From NCBI RefSeq assembly GCF_003173615.1, contig NZ_QGNA01000005.1:434001-498000 (forward strand): a stretch of DNA of 64,000 bases, given 5' to 3'. Of the stretch, positions 54,945 through 64,000 are shown piece after piece; positions within the stretch are counted from its first letter, which is position 1, and each line of letters begins with the position of its first letter. The translations under genes were made by a program, and so were the position numbers. Under the pieces are notes generated by a model. The model made no database searches, was not told the origin of the DNA, and was given only the letters and a program-made list of their open reading frames with translations. The DNA comes from Falsiroseomonas bella (GTDB lineage Bacteria; Pseudomonadota; Alphaproteobacteria; Acetobacterales; Acetobacteraceae).

Positions 54945-55217
54945 ATGAAGCCGAATGTGTACCGTTACGGCGAAGCCGTCTATGCGAAACCGCTAGGAGC
55001 ACTTCTTTTCACCGTCAGGCGTCAAACATTCCCAGATTTAGAGCTCTTGCGCGTCTGTCACGGTGTGACGGAGCTGGCCTGGGCTCGAGTAGACGCCTCT
55101 TCATCCTCTGGCGACGACGTGGCGGTGGATGGTCACATCATCACAGGGGAGGACTTTCGGGCCAGCTTCAGTGGCGGCAGCGTGCGGTTCATCACAGACA
55201 CTGTCGATCTGTTCTGA
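54945..55217 (+). CDS. Possible small protein of unknown function
   Basis: An open frame (90 residues from ATG 54945, open back to 54891) reads MKPNVYRYGEAVYAKPLGAL and ends GEDFRASFSGGSVRFITDTV, then DLF. It resembles no family I know. Its codons are not strongly biased toward G or C in third position, unlike true genes nearby, and its end overlaps the convergent HTH gene by 26 bases. It may be real or simply part of the 324-base region upstream of the giant adhesin, where no promoter motif is obvious. Confidence 0.3.
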   Translation: MKPNVYRYGEAVYAKPLGALLFTVRRQTFPDLELLRVCHGVTELAWARVDASSSSGDDVAVDGHIITGEDFRASFSGGSVRFITDTVDLF

Positions 55218-55620
55218 TTGGCGCGCCGGCCCGGCAATAGGCTGGGCCGGTGCACCTACTGCGCTGCTCACCCCAATAGATCGAAAGCGGCTCCATCAGC
55301 CCCGGCAGCGTCATCCCCTCGGGCTGTCGCCCATCCAGGATCGCCTCCACGATGTCCGGCGCCAGCAGCGTCAGTCGCAGCACCCGCGAGACGTAGGAGG
55401 AGTTGATCTTCTCGGCCGCGGCGAGCTCATTGATGGTGGCGAACCTCCCGGTCTCCAGCATCCGCCGCCACCGGAACGCTCGCGCCACCGCCTTGATGAG
55501 CGTGATGTCCTGCCGGCGCTCCAGTCCCAGCACGCCGGGCGTGACCATCGCCTTCCGCCCGCCACGCGGCTTCACCCGAAGCGGGATGACCACCGTGAGG
55601 GTCTGCGCCGCCTCGCTCAC
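55192..55620 (-). CDS. Recombinase-associated helix-turn-helix protein
   Basis: The 142-residue product contains LGLERRQDITLIKAVARAF, then a helix-turn-helix, TINELAAAEKINSSYVSRVLRLTLL, and the conserved LAPDIVEAILDGRQPEGMTL block. This small protein is commonly found after DUF2924 and serine recombinase genes in alphaproteobacteria, with no known function; the HTH resembles that of ParB-type DNA-binding proteins, so it may be a directionality or partition factor. Its start overlaps the recombinase stop by 4 bases. A truncated copy lies at 47007-47294. Confidence 0.75.
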   Translation of the reverse strand: MSEAAQTLTVVIPLRVKPRGGRKAMVTPGVLGLERRQDITLIKAVARAFRWRRMLETGRFATINELAAAEKINSSYVSRVLRLTLLAPDIVEAILDGRQPEGMTLPGLMEPLSIYWGEQRSRCTGPAYCRAGAPIRTDRQCL

Positions 55621-56969
55621 GCCGCAGCCCTCCCGGCCGCGGGCGCTTGGGCGGCCAGGTCGCGCACAAGGCTGCCGAGCCCGTCCAGTCGCAGGCGCAC
55701 CACGGCTCCGTCGGCCCGGACGTCGACCCGGTCTACCAGCAGCCGCACGATGCGCGCTCGCTCGGCTGGGAAGAGCTCATCCCAGAGCGGCTCGATCCGC
55801 TCCAGCGCCAGCAAGACCTCCTGCTCCGTCACGTCCGACGCCGTCGTGCGCGCCGCCCGCCATGTGCCGACCACCATTTCCGGCTGCCGCAGCAGCGCGC
55901 GGACCTGCGCGACCACTGCCGCCTCGATCTCGCCGGCTGGCAGCCGCGCGATGGCCGGCCGCTCGGTCGCGCCGCCCTTCAGCACGGCCTGGCTGACGTA
56001 GTAGCGATAGATCTGCCCGCCCCGGCCGCGGCTGTGGCTCGGCGACATGGCGCGGCTGTCGCTGTCGAAGATCAGGCCGCGCAGCAACGGCGCGGTGGTG
56101 TTCCGCGTCCGGTTGACCCGCACCCGCGGGCTGACTTGTAGGATGGCGTGCACCGCATCCCACTGCGCCTGGGCGACGATCGCATCGTGCTCGCCCGGAT
56201 AGGCTGTGCCCTTGTGCACCGCCTCGCCGAGATACACCCGGTTGCTGAGGATGCGGTAGACGTCGCTCTTCGTCAGCGGCCGGCCCCGCTTCGTGGTGGC
56301 GCCCTCGGCTCGCAGCACCTGCACCAGCCGCGTGCAGGACTCGGTTTCGACAAAGCCCTGGAAGATCCGCCGCACCAGCGCGGCTTCAGCGTCGTTCACC
56401 ACCAGCTTGCGCTGGCGCACGTCGTAGCCGAGCGGCACGTACCCGCCCATCCACATGCCGCGCTTTCGGGACGCCGCCACCTTGTCGCGGATGCGCTCGC
56501 CGATCACCTCGCGCTCGAACTGCGCGAAGCTGAGCAGGATGTTCAGCGTCAGCCGCCCCATGCTCGTGGTGGTATTGAAGCTCTGAGTCACCGACACGAA
56601 CGTCACGTCGTTCGCGTCGAACACCTCGACCAGCTTCGTGAAATCCACCAGCGACCGGCTGAGGCGGTCGATTTTATAGCAGACAATGACGTCGATCAGG
56701 CCGCGCTCGATATCGGCCAGCATGCGGCGCAGCGCCGGACGTTCGAGCGTCCCGCCGGACACGCCGCCATCGTCATAGCGGCCCGGTACCAGCACCCAGC
56801 CCTCCGCGCGCTGGCTGGCGATGAAGGCCTCGCAGGCCTCACGCTGCGCGTCGAGGGAATTGAACTCCATGTCGAGCCCTTCCTCGCTCGACTTCCTGGT
56901 GTAGACCGCGCAGCGCAGCTTCCGCACCGTCGCCGGCATCGCGCCGACCGGCTTCGCGTCGCGCTTCAT
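55617..56969 (-). CDS. Large serine recombinase
   Basis: The 450-residue product has an N-terminal resolvase domain (AVYTRKSSEEGLD with the catalytic Ser27; SLDAQREACEAFI; GRYDDGGVSGGTLERPALRRML; IVCYKIDRLSRSL; ERIRDKVAASRKRGMWMGG), then the recombinase domain (VYRILSNRVYLGEAVHKG) and a C-terminal part with a remnant zinc-ribbon region but without clear cysteine pairs. Large serine integrases recombine short att sites and usually need a separate factor for excision. ATG 56969 overlaps the DUF2924 stop by 4 bases, and the stop overlaps the HTH gene. It is the probable integrase of the mobile element. Confidence 0.92.
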   Translation of the reverse strand: MKRDAKPVGAMPATVRKLRCAVYTRKSSEEGLDMEFNSLDAQREACEAFIASQRAEGWVLVPGRYDDGGVSGGTLERPALRRMLADIERGLIDVIVCYKIDRLSRSLVDFTKLVEVFDANDVTFVSVTQSFNTTTSMGRLTLNILLSFAQFEREVIGERIRDKVAASRKRGMWMGGYVPLGYDVRQRKLVVNDAEAALVRRIFQGFVETESCTRLVQVLRAEGATTKRGRPLTKSDVYRILSNRVYLGEAVHKGTAYPGEHDAIVAQAQWDAVHAILQVSPRVRVNRTRNTTAPLLRGLIFDSDSRAMSPSHSRGRGGQIYRYYVSQAVLKGGATERPAIARLPAGEIEAAVVAQVRALLRQPEMVVGTWRAARTTASDVTEQEVLLALERIEPLWDELFPAERARIVRLLVDRVDVRADGAVVRLRLDGLGSLVRDLAAQAPAAGRAAA

Positions 56970-62877: not shown

Positions 62878-62878
62878 G

Positions 62879-64000
62879 ATGGACGGCACGGCGAGCCTGC
62901 CGCCGCGCGACGGCGACGGGCTGATCTGCCCGCTGCCGGAGGCGCTGCGCGCGCTCGCCGCGCTGCCGCATTGGGTGATCTGGCGCTGGACCGAGGCGAC
63001 TCCGGGCAGCAAGCCCGACAAACCACTGTTCCGCGCCGGCGATCCCTGGCGGCACGCATCCACGCAGGACCCCGCCTCCTGGGACACGTTCGGCGCCGCC
63101 ATGGGCGCGGTGGCCGCGGCGGAGGCCGACGGCGCTGGCTACGTCCTGCGCGACGACCCGACACACATCTTTCTCGACCTGGACAACTGCCGCGATCCCG
63201 TCACCGGCGCGCTCTCCGACTGGGCGCTGCGGCTCGTCGAGGAGGCCGGCAGCTACGCCGAGGTCACGCCCTCCGGCCGTGGCCTGCGCATCATCGGCAC
63301 CAACGAGAGTCTCCGCGCCCCGGTGCATCGCCGCATCGCCATGCCGGCGGGCGGCAGCGTCGAGATCTTTCACCGCTGCCCCCGCTACGTCACCGTCTCC
63401 GGCCGCCTGCTGCGCGAGGCACCCGACGCGCTGCGCCCGATCTGCGACATCGCCGCCGATCTGCTGCTGCTGGCGCAGCCGACCGCAGCCACGACGCCCG
63501 ACGCGGCGCCGCCACGGTCGAACCCCGATCCTGCCGGCTCGCCGCAGGACATCGCCTCGGCGCTGGCGCAGATCCCGAACCCCGACCTGCCCTGGGACGA
63601 GTGGTCGAACATCGGCATGGCGGTCTGGCGCGCCTCGGCCGGCAGCGCCGCGGGCCTCGCCGCCTGGACCGCCTGGTCGGCAAAGTCGGGCAAGCACCAG
63701 GACGCGGCCTGCCAGGAGCGCTGGCAGCACTGGTTCCGCAGCCCGCCCGACCGCATCGGCTACGCGTCTCTGCATCGCCTTGCGCGCGAGGCCAATCCGC
63801 TCTGGGTGAAGCCGTCTCTGGTCACCGCCCTGATGCCCTCCGCCGCGGCGCCGACGCGCGCACAGGGCGCCTCGGCCGAGTGGGAGGGGGACGTGCCGCA
63901 CGCAACGCCCACCCCGCCCAGCGGCGCCCAGAACGCGCCCGTGGCCAGCCTCGTCGCGACCCCCTTCGACCCGGCCGACCTGGCGGCACTGCGCCCCCGC
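62879..64000 (+). CDS. Primase-like replication protein, runs off the window
   Basis: The start ATG 62879 overlaps nothing but follows the previous stop by one base. The visible 374 residues have an archaeo-eukaryotic-type primase N-terminus: LPHWVIWRW, DPTHIFLDLDNCRDPVTG with the Asp-Leu-Asp catalytic pair, and SYAEVTPSGRGLRIIG. From about residue 225 is a PriCT-2-like segment (IASALAQIPNPDLPWDEWSN, then GMAVWRAS and WQHWFRSPPDRIGYASLHRL). Such proteins usually continue into a helicase domain, which would lie outside the window. They replicate plasmids, phages and integrative elements. Confidence 0.85.
   Translation, partial: MDGTASLPPRDGDGLICPLPEALRALAALPHWVIWRWTEATPGSKPDKPLFRAGDPWRHASTQDPASWDTFGAAMGAVAAAEADGAGYVLRDDPTHIFLDLDNCRDPVTGALSDWALRLVEEAGSYAEVTPSGRGLRIIGTNESLRAPVHRRIAMPAGGSVEIFHRCPRYVTVSGRLLREAPDALRPICDIAADLLLLAQPTAATTPDAAPPRSNPDPAGSPQDIASALAQIPNPDLPWDEWSNIGMAVWRASAGSAAGLAAWTAWSAKSGKHQDAACQERWQHWFRSPPDRIGYASLHRLAREANPLWVKPSLVTALMPSAAAPTRAQGASAEWEGDVPHATPTPPSGAQNAPVASLVATPFDPADLAALRPR

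What the first reader, a model, noticed from the sequence alone, without database searches (positions are those of the whole stretch)
55192..64000. Apparent integrative element with an ImmA/XRE switch facing a replication module
A minus-strand operon of seven genes (ImmA, XRE, unknown, small ORF, DUF2924, serine recombinase, HTH), mostly with 4-base overlaps, diverges from a plus-strand set (sigma-like, unknown, two PD-(D/E)XK nucleases, membrane peptide, possible SSB, primase). The layout parallels the regulation region of ICEBs1-like elements and lambdoid phages, but with a different gene set. I do not know a described family with this combination.
Basis: partly seen in the sequence, partly recalled or inferred. 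Interest (0 to 1): 0.75.

Follow-up and report, generated by a model that had tools for sequence, protein, structure and literature searches.

The report
Truncated prophage with sigma-factor genetic switch
This stretch is the left half of a bacterial virus lying dormant in a relative of the acetic-acid bacteria: it kept its integration, on/off-switch and replication genes but lost its particle-building genes, and its switch and integrase modules, little described so far, recur in related viruses.

Summary
In detail: seven minus-strand genes (4 of 6 junctions overlap by 4 nt) face a plus-strand set. Reading on in the contig settles identity: primase, DUF6456 protein, two ParB-methyltransferases, TerS, gpA-type TerL and a lambda-family portal cut off after about 142 codons, then chromosome. 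It is a right-truncated prophage, not an ICE, already in IMG/VR (20,960 bp). Five related prophages or remnants lie in the same genome.

Three things are more than ordinary. (1) The XRE/ImmA pair diverges from an ECF-like sigma factor; ImmA occurs in 19 of 200 family genomes, always beside XRE in the 22 loci seen, yet sigma and ImmA match none of 50,697 phage records. (2) A tandem GAAC-N7-GAAC site precedes immA in 56 of 59 non-identical intergenic regions, usually at fixed distance from a CTGGAC-like box. (3) The small HTH gene behind the serine recombinase is a detached C-terminal domain: it is fused to the recombinase in Wolbachia phage WO and in two genomes of the same class.

Model: XRE represses the sigma-led lytic operon, ImmA relieves it, and a two-protein serine integrase with DUF2924 integrates and excises.

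The parts
55192..55620 (-). HTH142: small HTH protein, detached C-terminal domain of the serine recombinase; homology shared with the other prophages stops near 55240-55273 (left edge)
   Evidence: phrog_14161 'recombinase' E 4e-37; fused to the recombinase in WO gp31 and in L206-L208; left edge
55617..56969 (-). large serine recombinase (integrase), 450 aa
   Evidence: Resolvase E 3e-39, Recombinase E 4e-16; phrog_95 integrase E 1e-104
56966..57466 (-). DUF2924 protein, 166 aa; recurrent partner of the recombinase
   Evidence: DUF2924 E 1e-47 in the longer frame scanned; same pair in AcaML1 gp4-gp3 and WO gp30-gp31
57463..57660 (-). small conserved ORF, 65 aa
   Evidence: tblastn match in the same place in 19 of 22 ImmA loci at E 1e-3, 18 of 22 at E 1e-4; no NCBIfam match
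57693..58457 (-). unknown 254-aa protein, between XRE and the small ORF
   Evidence: phrog_13283 (unknown) E 3e-20; found in 21 of 22 ImmA loci (L077 ends before it)
58461..58742 (-). XRE-family repressor-like protein, 93 aa
   Evidence: HTH_31 E 5e-10, HTH_3 E 4e-9
58739..59467 (-). ImmA/IrrE-like metallopeptidase (HEVGH), about 242 aa, first gene of the operon
   Evidence: Peptidase_M78 E 9e-4, below cutoff; weak PHROG matches to a transcriptional regulator and a metallo-protease; capP E 3e-5, RmrA E 7e-5
59511..59545 (-). conserved promoter/operator-like element of the immA-xre-int operon: CTGGAC-N17-CGTAAA overlapping GAAC-N7-GAAC
   Evidence: 56 of 59 non-identical intergenic regions hold GTTC-N7-GTTC, shuffles mean 0.28, max 1; consensus; the strict pattern matches the own genome twice, here and at C12c; the C11 copy has a variant box and is not matched
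59656..59675 (.). perfect 9-nt inverted repeat GAATTCCTG/CAGGAATTC upstream of the sigma gene, possible second operator
   Evidence: also picked up by the terminator scan
59758..60345 (+). ECF-like sigma factor, first gene of the lytic-side operon
   Evidence: Sigma70_r2 in 20 of 20 family members; profile hits solved ECF sigma factors, E 7e-7; model's best Foldseek matches are sigma factors, best E 3e-3, TM (by query length) below 0.4
60388..60786 (+). unknown 132-aa protein, follows the sigma gene in 75 of 80 IMG/VR loci
   Evidence: no Pfam, PHROG or NCBIfam match
60786..61235 (+). PD-(D/E)XK-type / RusA-like resolvase-like nuclease
   Evidence: phrog_244 E 1e-9; PDDEXK_15 E 1e-3, below cutoff
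61232..61993 (+). second PD-(D/E)XK-like nuclease
   Evidence: PDDEXK_1 E 3e-3, below cutoff; DruK E 2e-4
61983..62108 (+). 41-aa hydrophobic peptide
   Evidence: ORF; no homologue reported or 39
   Evidence: no Pfam hit; one weak PHROG hit, nucleotidyltransferase E 2e-3
62879..64000 (+). primase/helicase (continues to contig base 499101, i.e. 1101 bases past the window)
   Evidence: PriCT_2 E 7e-13, AAA_25 E 3e-36

Best explanation
The region is the left part (integration, immunity, early/replication, DNA modification, packaging start) of a temperate tailed-phage prophage whose right part, from inside the portal gene on, has been lost; the remnant is about 21 kb (contig bases about 489,240-510,481). 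Shown by sequence: gene content, truncation, recurrence of the modules, a conserved promoter-like element. Inferred: in the lysogen the XRE protein binds the tandem GAAC sites that overlap the -10 of its own operon and holds the divergent sigma operon off; an inducing signal activates ImmA, which removes XRE; the phage ECF-like sigma factor is then made and directs RNA polymerase to phage promoters for the nuclease, primase and later genes, with the DUF6456 (GafZ-like) protein as a possible late-gene regulator. Integration and excision use a serine integrase whose C-terminal HTH domain is a separate protein read from an overlapping start, together with DUF2924. This copy cannot make virions alone; its integrase, switch and replication reading frames are open.
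For: Contig extension and annotation: TerS, gpA TerL (E 2e-101), lambda-family portal cut; DNA homology to four of the five other prophages (C8, C11, C12a, C12c) stops at contig base 510481, and DNA conserved in relatives starts at 510545. The first 14,722 bases of IMGVR_UViG_2848490981_000003 equal contig bases from 489621 on exactly. Switch cassette: 22 of 22 ImmA loci with XRE, 21 with sigma; ImmA+XRE in 51 of 68 IMG/VR sigma loci with at least 1.4 kb upstream. Tandem site: 56 of 59, consensus. Sigma identity. Split recombinase: of 70 loci with the recombinase upstream, 69 have the HTH in the frame that allows a 4-nt overlap and 66 have a start codon exactly there; fused in L206-L208 and WO; the tree needs at least 2 changes of state.
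Against: No binding, cleavage, transcription or excision data. Pfam M78 and NCBIfam sigma matches are below curated cutoffs. No Pfam match to sigma region 4 in any of 20 members; the sigma model gives no Foldseek match at E 1e-3. 17 of 68 IMG/VR sigma loci with upstream sequence lack a detectable ImmA+XRE pair, so the pairing is not universal; C8, C12a and C12b, three of the five other prophages here, lack the cassette too. 3 of 59 intergenic regions lack the tandem site. att core not resolved, and no clean empty site was found because the left flank did not match in relatives. The consensus promoter scan found no sigma-70 site in window 59400-59800.
Confidence: 0.78

Rival explanations
1. An integrative and conjugative or mobilizable element with an ICEBs1-type ImmR/ImmA switch.
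For: XRE/ImmA pair and divergent layout.
Against: Serine integrase; terminase and portal present; no relaxase or T4SS family among 20 scanned proteins; prophage-sized relatives in the same genome.
Confidence: 0.03
2. A functional phage satellite: a capsid-less element kept by selection that uses co-resident prophages (several related ones in the same genome) for particles, packaging with its own TerS/TerL.
For: Integrase, switch, replication, methyltransferase and terminase frames are open while head and tail genes are absent; helper candidates in the same genome, 75-80% identical over the portal fragment and 62-97% over TerL.
Against: The right end falls inside the portal gene and no attachment site was recognised there, as expected of a chance deletion; relatives of the cassette also sit on IMG/VR contigs of up to 65 kb.
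Confidence: 0.1
3. The sigma-like protein does not act as a sigma factor but as a Cro-like regulator or as a sigma appropriator of the host polymerase; the switch is otherwise an ordinary XRE/ImmA switch.
For: No Pfam region 4 match in 20 members; NCBIfam ECF model below cutoff (24 vs 43 bits).
Against: Two helical domains with a low-confidence linker in the model; the best profile match to a solved ECF sigma factor covers query residues 16-145; the two best Foldseek matches are an ECF sigma factor, at E 3e-3 and 8e-3.
Confidence: 0.25
4. The HTH gene is an independent accessory (directionality factor or regulator) that was only occasionally fused to the recombinase.
For: Not fused in any of the 70 genome loci with a recombinase upstream, although these were selected by similarity to the split form; a second HTH142-like gene, gp1, in AcaML1.
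Against: Fused in WO and in L206-L208, at least 2 changes on the tree, with WO on a long, uncertain branch; a start codon at exactly 4 nt overlap with the recombinase stop in 66 of 70 loci, which suggests coupled translation.
Confidence: 0.35

Closest known systems
Acidithiobacillus caldus phage AcaML1 (JX507079)
   Same: DUF2924-serine recombinase ('large subunit')-HTH ('small subunit') in the same order, after a small ORF (63 aa) in the same place; divergent early genes with a primase; DUF6456-like gp20; then two ParB/N6-methyltransferases, a DUF3489-like gene, an annotated TerS and gpA TerL.
   Different: Our TerS protein matches gp23, before the methyltransferases, not the annotated TerS gp33. 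No ImmA or sigma homologue found; annotated with an excisionase, a transcriptional regulator and an antirepressor instead; recombinase 53% identical; complete phage of 59 kb.
Wolbachia phage WO (Symbioviridae proposal)
   Same: DUF2924 directly before a serine recombinase; HTH142 domain present; gpA TerL about 50% identical.
   Different: HTH domain fused to the recombinase, 514 aa; the proposed family's eukaryotic association module and PAAR gene (passages of PMC9203015) were not seen among the 20 proteins scanned here.
ICEBs1 ImmR/ImmA switch
   Same: XRE-type regulator in tandem with ImmA (search listing and start of abstract of PMC8960796; mechanism otherwise recalled).
   Different: Here ImmA is the first gene, before XRE; the divergent first gene is an ECF-like sigma factor (an excisionase in ICEBs1, recalled); phage, not ICE.
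CapH/CapP and similar XRE-metalloprotease regulators of defence systems
   Same: ImmA matches the capP model (E 3e-5); XRE partner adjacent. Mechanism recalled.
   Different: Part of a prophage; no CBASS gene recognised among the proteins scanned.
GafA / GafYZ regulators of alphaproteobacterial gene transfer agents
   Same: The element's 184-aa protein at contig 500488-501042 matches DUF6456 (27.5 bits, cutoff 26.3), the domain annotated in GafA homologues (passages of PMC9638019); GafZ resembles the GafA C-terminus and is described as an anti-terminator (passages of PMC11150451).
   Different: No GafY/DnaA-like partner was identified (not searched for specifically); regulation here untested.
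Rhodobacter capsulatus phages RcKemmy/RcDormio group
   Same: Best-ranked named large terminases, 54-55% over 99% of the query.
   Different: No sigma or ImmA match; no HTH142 match.

Membership tests
Tailed-phage prophage (Caudoviricetes) | Integrase, primase and terminase genes | tested here: met
Tailed-phage prophage (Caudoviricetes) | Portal, head and tail genes | tested here: not met
   Only the first ~142 codons of the portal remain; the following DNA is conserved in relatives and includes an enoyl-ACP reductase family gene. Four related copies share long stretches beyond the portal. So: remnant of one, not a complete one.
AcaML1-like phages | small ORF-DUF2924-recombinase-HTH; methyltransferase pair before TerL | tested here: met
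AcaML1-like phages | TerS directly before TerL, homologous in both | tested here: not met
   our TerS matches gp23, not the annotated gp33
AcaML1-like phages | Its regulators (excisionase, antirepressor) | tested here: not met
   Region holds ImmA/XRE/sigma instead
ICE (ICEBs1 type) | Relaxase and T4SS | tested here: not met
   None among the 20 element proteins scanned of 24 called
ICE (ICEBs1 type) | XRE/ImmA regulator pair | tested here: met
ECF sigma factors | Region 2 | tested here: met
   Sigma70_r2 above cutoff in the window protein (35.3 vs 24) and a match in 20 of 20 members
ECF sigma factors | Region 4 HTH | tested here: inconclusive
   No Pfam match; model has a C-terminal four-helix domain and ECF factors as best fold matches, none at E 1e-3
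ECF sigma factors | Directs transcription | not testable with these tools
   -
ImmA/IrrE metallopeptidases (M78) | Family score above curated cutoff | tested here: not met
   19.5 vs 22 bits
ImmA/IrrE metallopeptidases (M78) | HExxH motif and XRE partner | tested here: met
   HEVGH in the translation; XRE adjacent in 22 of 22 loci
Large serine integrases | Resolvase + Recombinase + zinc ribbon | tested here: met
   First two above cutoff, zinc ribbon weak (17.8 vs 25.3)
Symbioviridae (phage WO) | PAAR gene, eukaryotic association module | tested here: inconclusive
   Structural half deleted; no such gene among the 20 proteins scanned
GafZ/DUF6456 | DUF6456 above cutoff | tested here: met
   27.5 vs 26.3 bits; AcaML1 gp20 only 22.0

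The most novel reading that the evidence does not exclude
A widespread but undescribed temperate-phage switch in which lysogeny is kept by an XRE repressor, broken by an ImmA protease, and executed by a phage-encoded ECF sigma factor as master activator of the lytic programme, coupled in one operon to a two-protein serine integrase (catalytic subunit plus detached C-terminal HTH subunit) that works with DUF2924.
Probability: 0.35. Interest if true: 0.7.

Novelty: new variant of a known kind. Interest (0 to 1): 0.48.

Why it matters
A prophage remnant is ordinary, but the modules are not one-offs: ImmA with its XRE partner turns up in 15 of 102 genera sampled in one family, and the HTH domain in 90 of 398 genomes sampled in the phylum. 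If the model is right, it gives phages a sigma-factor-driven lytic switch under a protease-sensitive repressor, and it adds a two-subunit serine integrase (of interest as a DNA-integration tool) whose small subunit has no Pfam or NCBIfam family. The conserved GAAC-N7-GAAC element makes the switch directly testable.

Tried and rejected
ICE: rejected on terminase/portal and absence of relaxase/T4SS among 20 scanned proteins. Clean empty site: not found; the right flank is conserved in four loci of the genus, but what I fetched to their left does not match the window or the left tiles. att core: comparing left and right ends of three complete-looking prophages gave only 8-11-nt matches, which I treat as chance-like. 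DUF2924 as a RAMA-like modified-DNA reader: an idea from recalled motifs; the model (pLDDT 73, pTM 0.38) had no PDB match at E 1e-3, and no paper in the library holds both 'RAMA domain' and 'serine recombinase'; dropped. A parallel between the 168-bp repeats after the DUF6456 gene and the GTA terminator repeats: rejected; the repeats lie in an open frame that reads as a repetitive protein, no terminator-like site was found, and tandem repeats were found only in C10 among the five gaps compared. Literature: DUF2924 is in 3 papers, of which I opened one (passages of PMC10299305); it says a recombinase lies immediately downstream of a DUF2924 protein. Searches for a split serine integrase or for an ImmA/ECF phage switch (no paper; 14 papers, 10 listings seen; 4 papers, passages of one read) showed no description of either in the parts I saw; the library holds only open-licence papers.
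Full report
WHAT IS THERE. The window is contig C10, bases 434001-498000, of a 5.94-Mb genome. On the minus strand, in order of transcription: ImmA-like metallopeptidase, XRE, a 254-aa unknown, a 65-aa ORF, DUF2924, a 450-aa large serine recombinase and a 142-aa HTH protein. Four of six junctions overlap by 4 nt. On the plus strand: sigma-like protein, a 132-aa unknown, two PD-(D/E)XK-like proteins, a 41-aa hydrophobic peptide, a 235-aa protein without clear relatives and a primase/helicase. The 'SSB' label has no support; the nuclease labels rest on below-cutoff Pfam matches and, for the first, one PHROG match.

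EXTENSION TO THE RIGHT. Reading on in the contig: primase to 499101, a DUF6456 protein (500488-501042), a repetitive ORF of about 300 aa built of 168-bp repeats, two ParB-domain DNA methyltransferases (502521-505263), a DUF3489 protein on the minus strand, a terminase small subunit (507212), a gpA-type terminase large subunit (507844-509808) and a lambda-family portal gene. DNA homology to four of the five other prophages of this genome ends at 510481, about 142 codons into the portal, against 491 aa for the C8 portal ORF. From 510545 on the DNA is conserved in relatives (74-83% over the first 1.7 kb in four loci of the genus, up to 90% in later stretches). On the left, homology shared by the prophages ends at the 3' end of the HTH gene, at window 55240-55273. 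IMG/VR already lists the stretch as UViG 2848490981_000003, 20,960 bp; its first 14,722 bases, the part I hold, equal the contig from base 489621 exactly.

SIX RELATED ELEMENTS IN ONE GENOME. Besides C10, tblastn finds the recombinase-HTH-DUF2924 module on C8, C11 and three times on C12. Shared stretches by blastn run from C8 195.6 to 235.4 kb, C12 35.7 to 76.7 kb and C12 167.8 to 211.3 kb (about 40-44 kb each); C11 spans about 36 kb or more, and the third C12 copy is a remnant whose HTH gene has an in-frame stop. Of the five, only C12c and C11 carry the ImmA/XRE/sigma cassette (XRE 95% and 69%, ImmA 89% and 47%), so the cassette is exchangeable.

THE SWITCH. ImmA as query in 200 genomes of the family: 19 of 200 genomes and 15 of 102 genera have it, the own genome included. 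All 22 loci (3 in the own genome) have XRE beside it and 21 have the divergent sigma gene; the 22nd ends too early. Starting from sigma in IMG/VR, the best 80 of 147 loci: 75 of 80 have the 132-aa gene downstream; of 68 with at least 1.4 kb upstream, 51 have ImmA and XRE, ImmA is divergent within 900 nt in 49, and 17 lack the pair (two of the 17 have XRE without ImmA). tblastn with sigma or ImmA against 50,697 phage records gives no match at E 0.01. The sigma protein: Sigma70_r2 in 20 of 20 members; profile of 36 members matches solved ECF sigma factors (E 7e-7 and 9e-7); AlphaFold model with two helical domains, 17-91 and 119-176 (pLDDT 83, pTM 0.46), whose two best PDB matches are an ECF sigma factor at E 3e-3 and 8e-3 with TM about 0.3. 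Against: no region-4 Pfam match, no Foldseek match at E 1e-3, NCBIfam scores below cutoffs.

THE CIS ELEMENT. I looked at 262 loci; 88 had ImmA, XRE and sigma at the right spacing, 59 were left after removing identical intergenic regions. 56 of 59 hold GTTC-N7-GTTC 41-49 nt upstream of the aligned immA start; dinucleotide shuffles give a mean of 0.28 loci, maximum 1. A GTCCAG-like box follows 13-16 nt further in 51 of these 56, at 14 nt in 45. On the immA strand the consensus reads CTGGACTC-N12-GAACATAAAG-N-GAAC, which I read as -35 CTGGAC, 17-nt spacer, -10 CATAAA, with tandem GAAC over the -10 and start; the sigma-70 consensus scan does not report it. In a thinned set of 22 with differing XRE it is still visible, but this thinning kept only loci with the motif, and all loci are related to one another. 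The three without the motif are L080, L086 and L087. The strict pattern CTGGAC-N14-16-GAACRTANANNGAAC matches the own genome exactly twice, upstream of immA in C10 and C12c; C11 has the tandem site with a variant box. Upstream of sigma there is a perfect 9-nt inverted repeat in this copy; in more distant loci this place holds GC-rich repeats instead, unexplained. That XRE binds either site is inference.

THE RECOMBINASE MODULE. HTH142 has no Pfam or NCBIfam family but is phrog_14161, 'recombinase'. In WO gp31 the same domain is the C-terminus of a 514-aa serine recombinase. Of at least 571 relatives in named genomes the best 80 were examined: 70 have the recombinase within 700 nt upstream, 10 have none detected there. 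Of the 70 none is fused; in 69 the HTH lies in the frame that allows a 4-nt overlap with the recombinase stop, and 66 have an ATG, GTG or TTG exactly there. In one search the start nearest to a 4-nt overlap was picked, so this counts possible starts; in 26 of the 30 loci whose match begins at residue 1 of the window protein that residue lies at the overlap. In 398 genomes of the phylum 90 have the domain at E 1e-6. I opened five loci with long open frames: three are fused (open frames of 556 and 555 aa in one genome, 614 aa in another), two are not. On a tree of 57 recombinases, three of them fused, the fused state needs at least two changes, though the WO branch is very long and its place unsure. 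I conclude that HTH142 is a recombinase subunit; its exact role is open. DUF2924 precedes the recombinase in AcaML1 and WO as well.

HOW IT PROBABLY WORKS. XRE, made with ImmA from the conserved promoter, keeps its own operon at a set level and the sigma operon off. A signal (DNA damage or single-stranded DNA, by analogy with ImmR/ImmA and CapH/CapP, recalled) lets ImmA remove XRE. The sigma factor opens the early operon; DUF6456, a relative of the GTA regulator domain, may act on late genes. The recombinase with its HTH subunit and DUF2924 excises the prophage. Shown: gene order, recurrence, conserved element, truncation. Inferred: every regulatory step.

WHAT IS KNOWN. AcaML1 has much the same integration, methylation and packaging architecture, but other regulators, and our TerS matches its gp23 rather than the annotated TerS. 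Phage WO has DUF2924 and a fused recombinase. One opened paper notes in passing a recombinase immediately downstream of a DUF2924 protein (PMC10299305, passages). The AcaML1 annotators already called gp2 'site specific recombinase small subunit', so the pairing is not wholly unnoticed.

VERDICT. Observation confirmed; a truncated prophage, new variant of a known kind. The element as such is ordinary; the switch and the two-protein integrase deserve experiments.

Noticed in passing
window 47028-47384: A second, shorter HTH142 remnant (58% identical) 8 kb left of the element, with a large repeat-protein gene between them; possibly the trace of another integration or a rearrangement.
   Followed up: partly
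window 47764-54867: A 2367-aa protein of bacterial cadherin-like/Big repeats with RTX calcium-binding repeats at its C-terminus; a query from its 5' end and the flank gave only short matches in 3 of 14 other genomes of the genus.
   Followed up: partly
L010:5315-6208 (outside the window, right): A gene of about four 168-bp repeats encoding a repetitive protein with a signal-like N-terminus and a PEP-CTERM-like end (my reading); no tandem repeats in the corresponding gap of four related prophages.
   Followed up: partly
L010:4489-5043 (outside the window, right): All six prophages of this genome carry a homologue of this DUF6456 protein, the domain of the gene-transfer-agent regulator GafA; AcaML1 gp20 matches it weakly. 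The phage side of GTA regulator ancestry could be examined with these.
   Followed up: partly
sigma-side intergenic regions of L087, L097, L098, L234 and others: Iterated GC-rich units (such as CCGCACC with an inverted copy) upstream of the sigma gene, of different sequence in different XRE groups; possible lytic-side operators.
   Followed up: no
contig C8, 193531-194871 and 239393-240733: An identical 1341-bp direct repeat lies on either side of the C8 prophage; probably two copies of an insertion sequence.
   Followed up: no
L066:21748-22221 (AcaML1 gp1): AcaML1 has a second HTH142-like gene next to the annotated recombinase small subunit.
   Followed up: no
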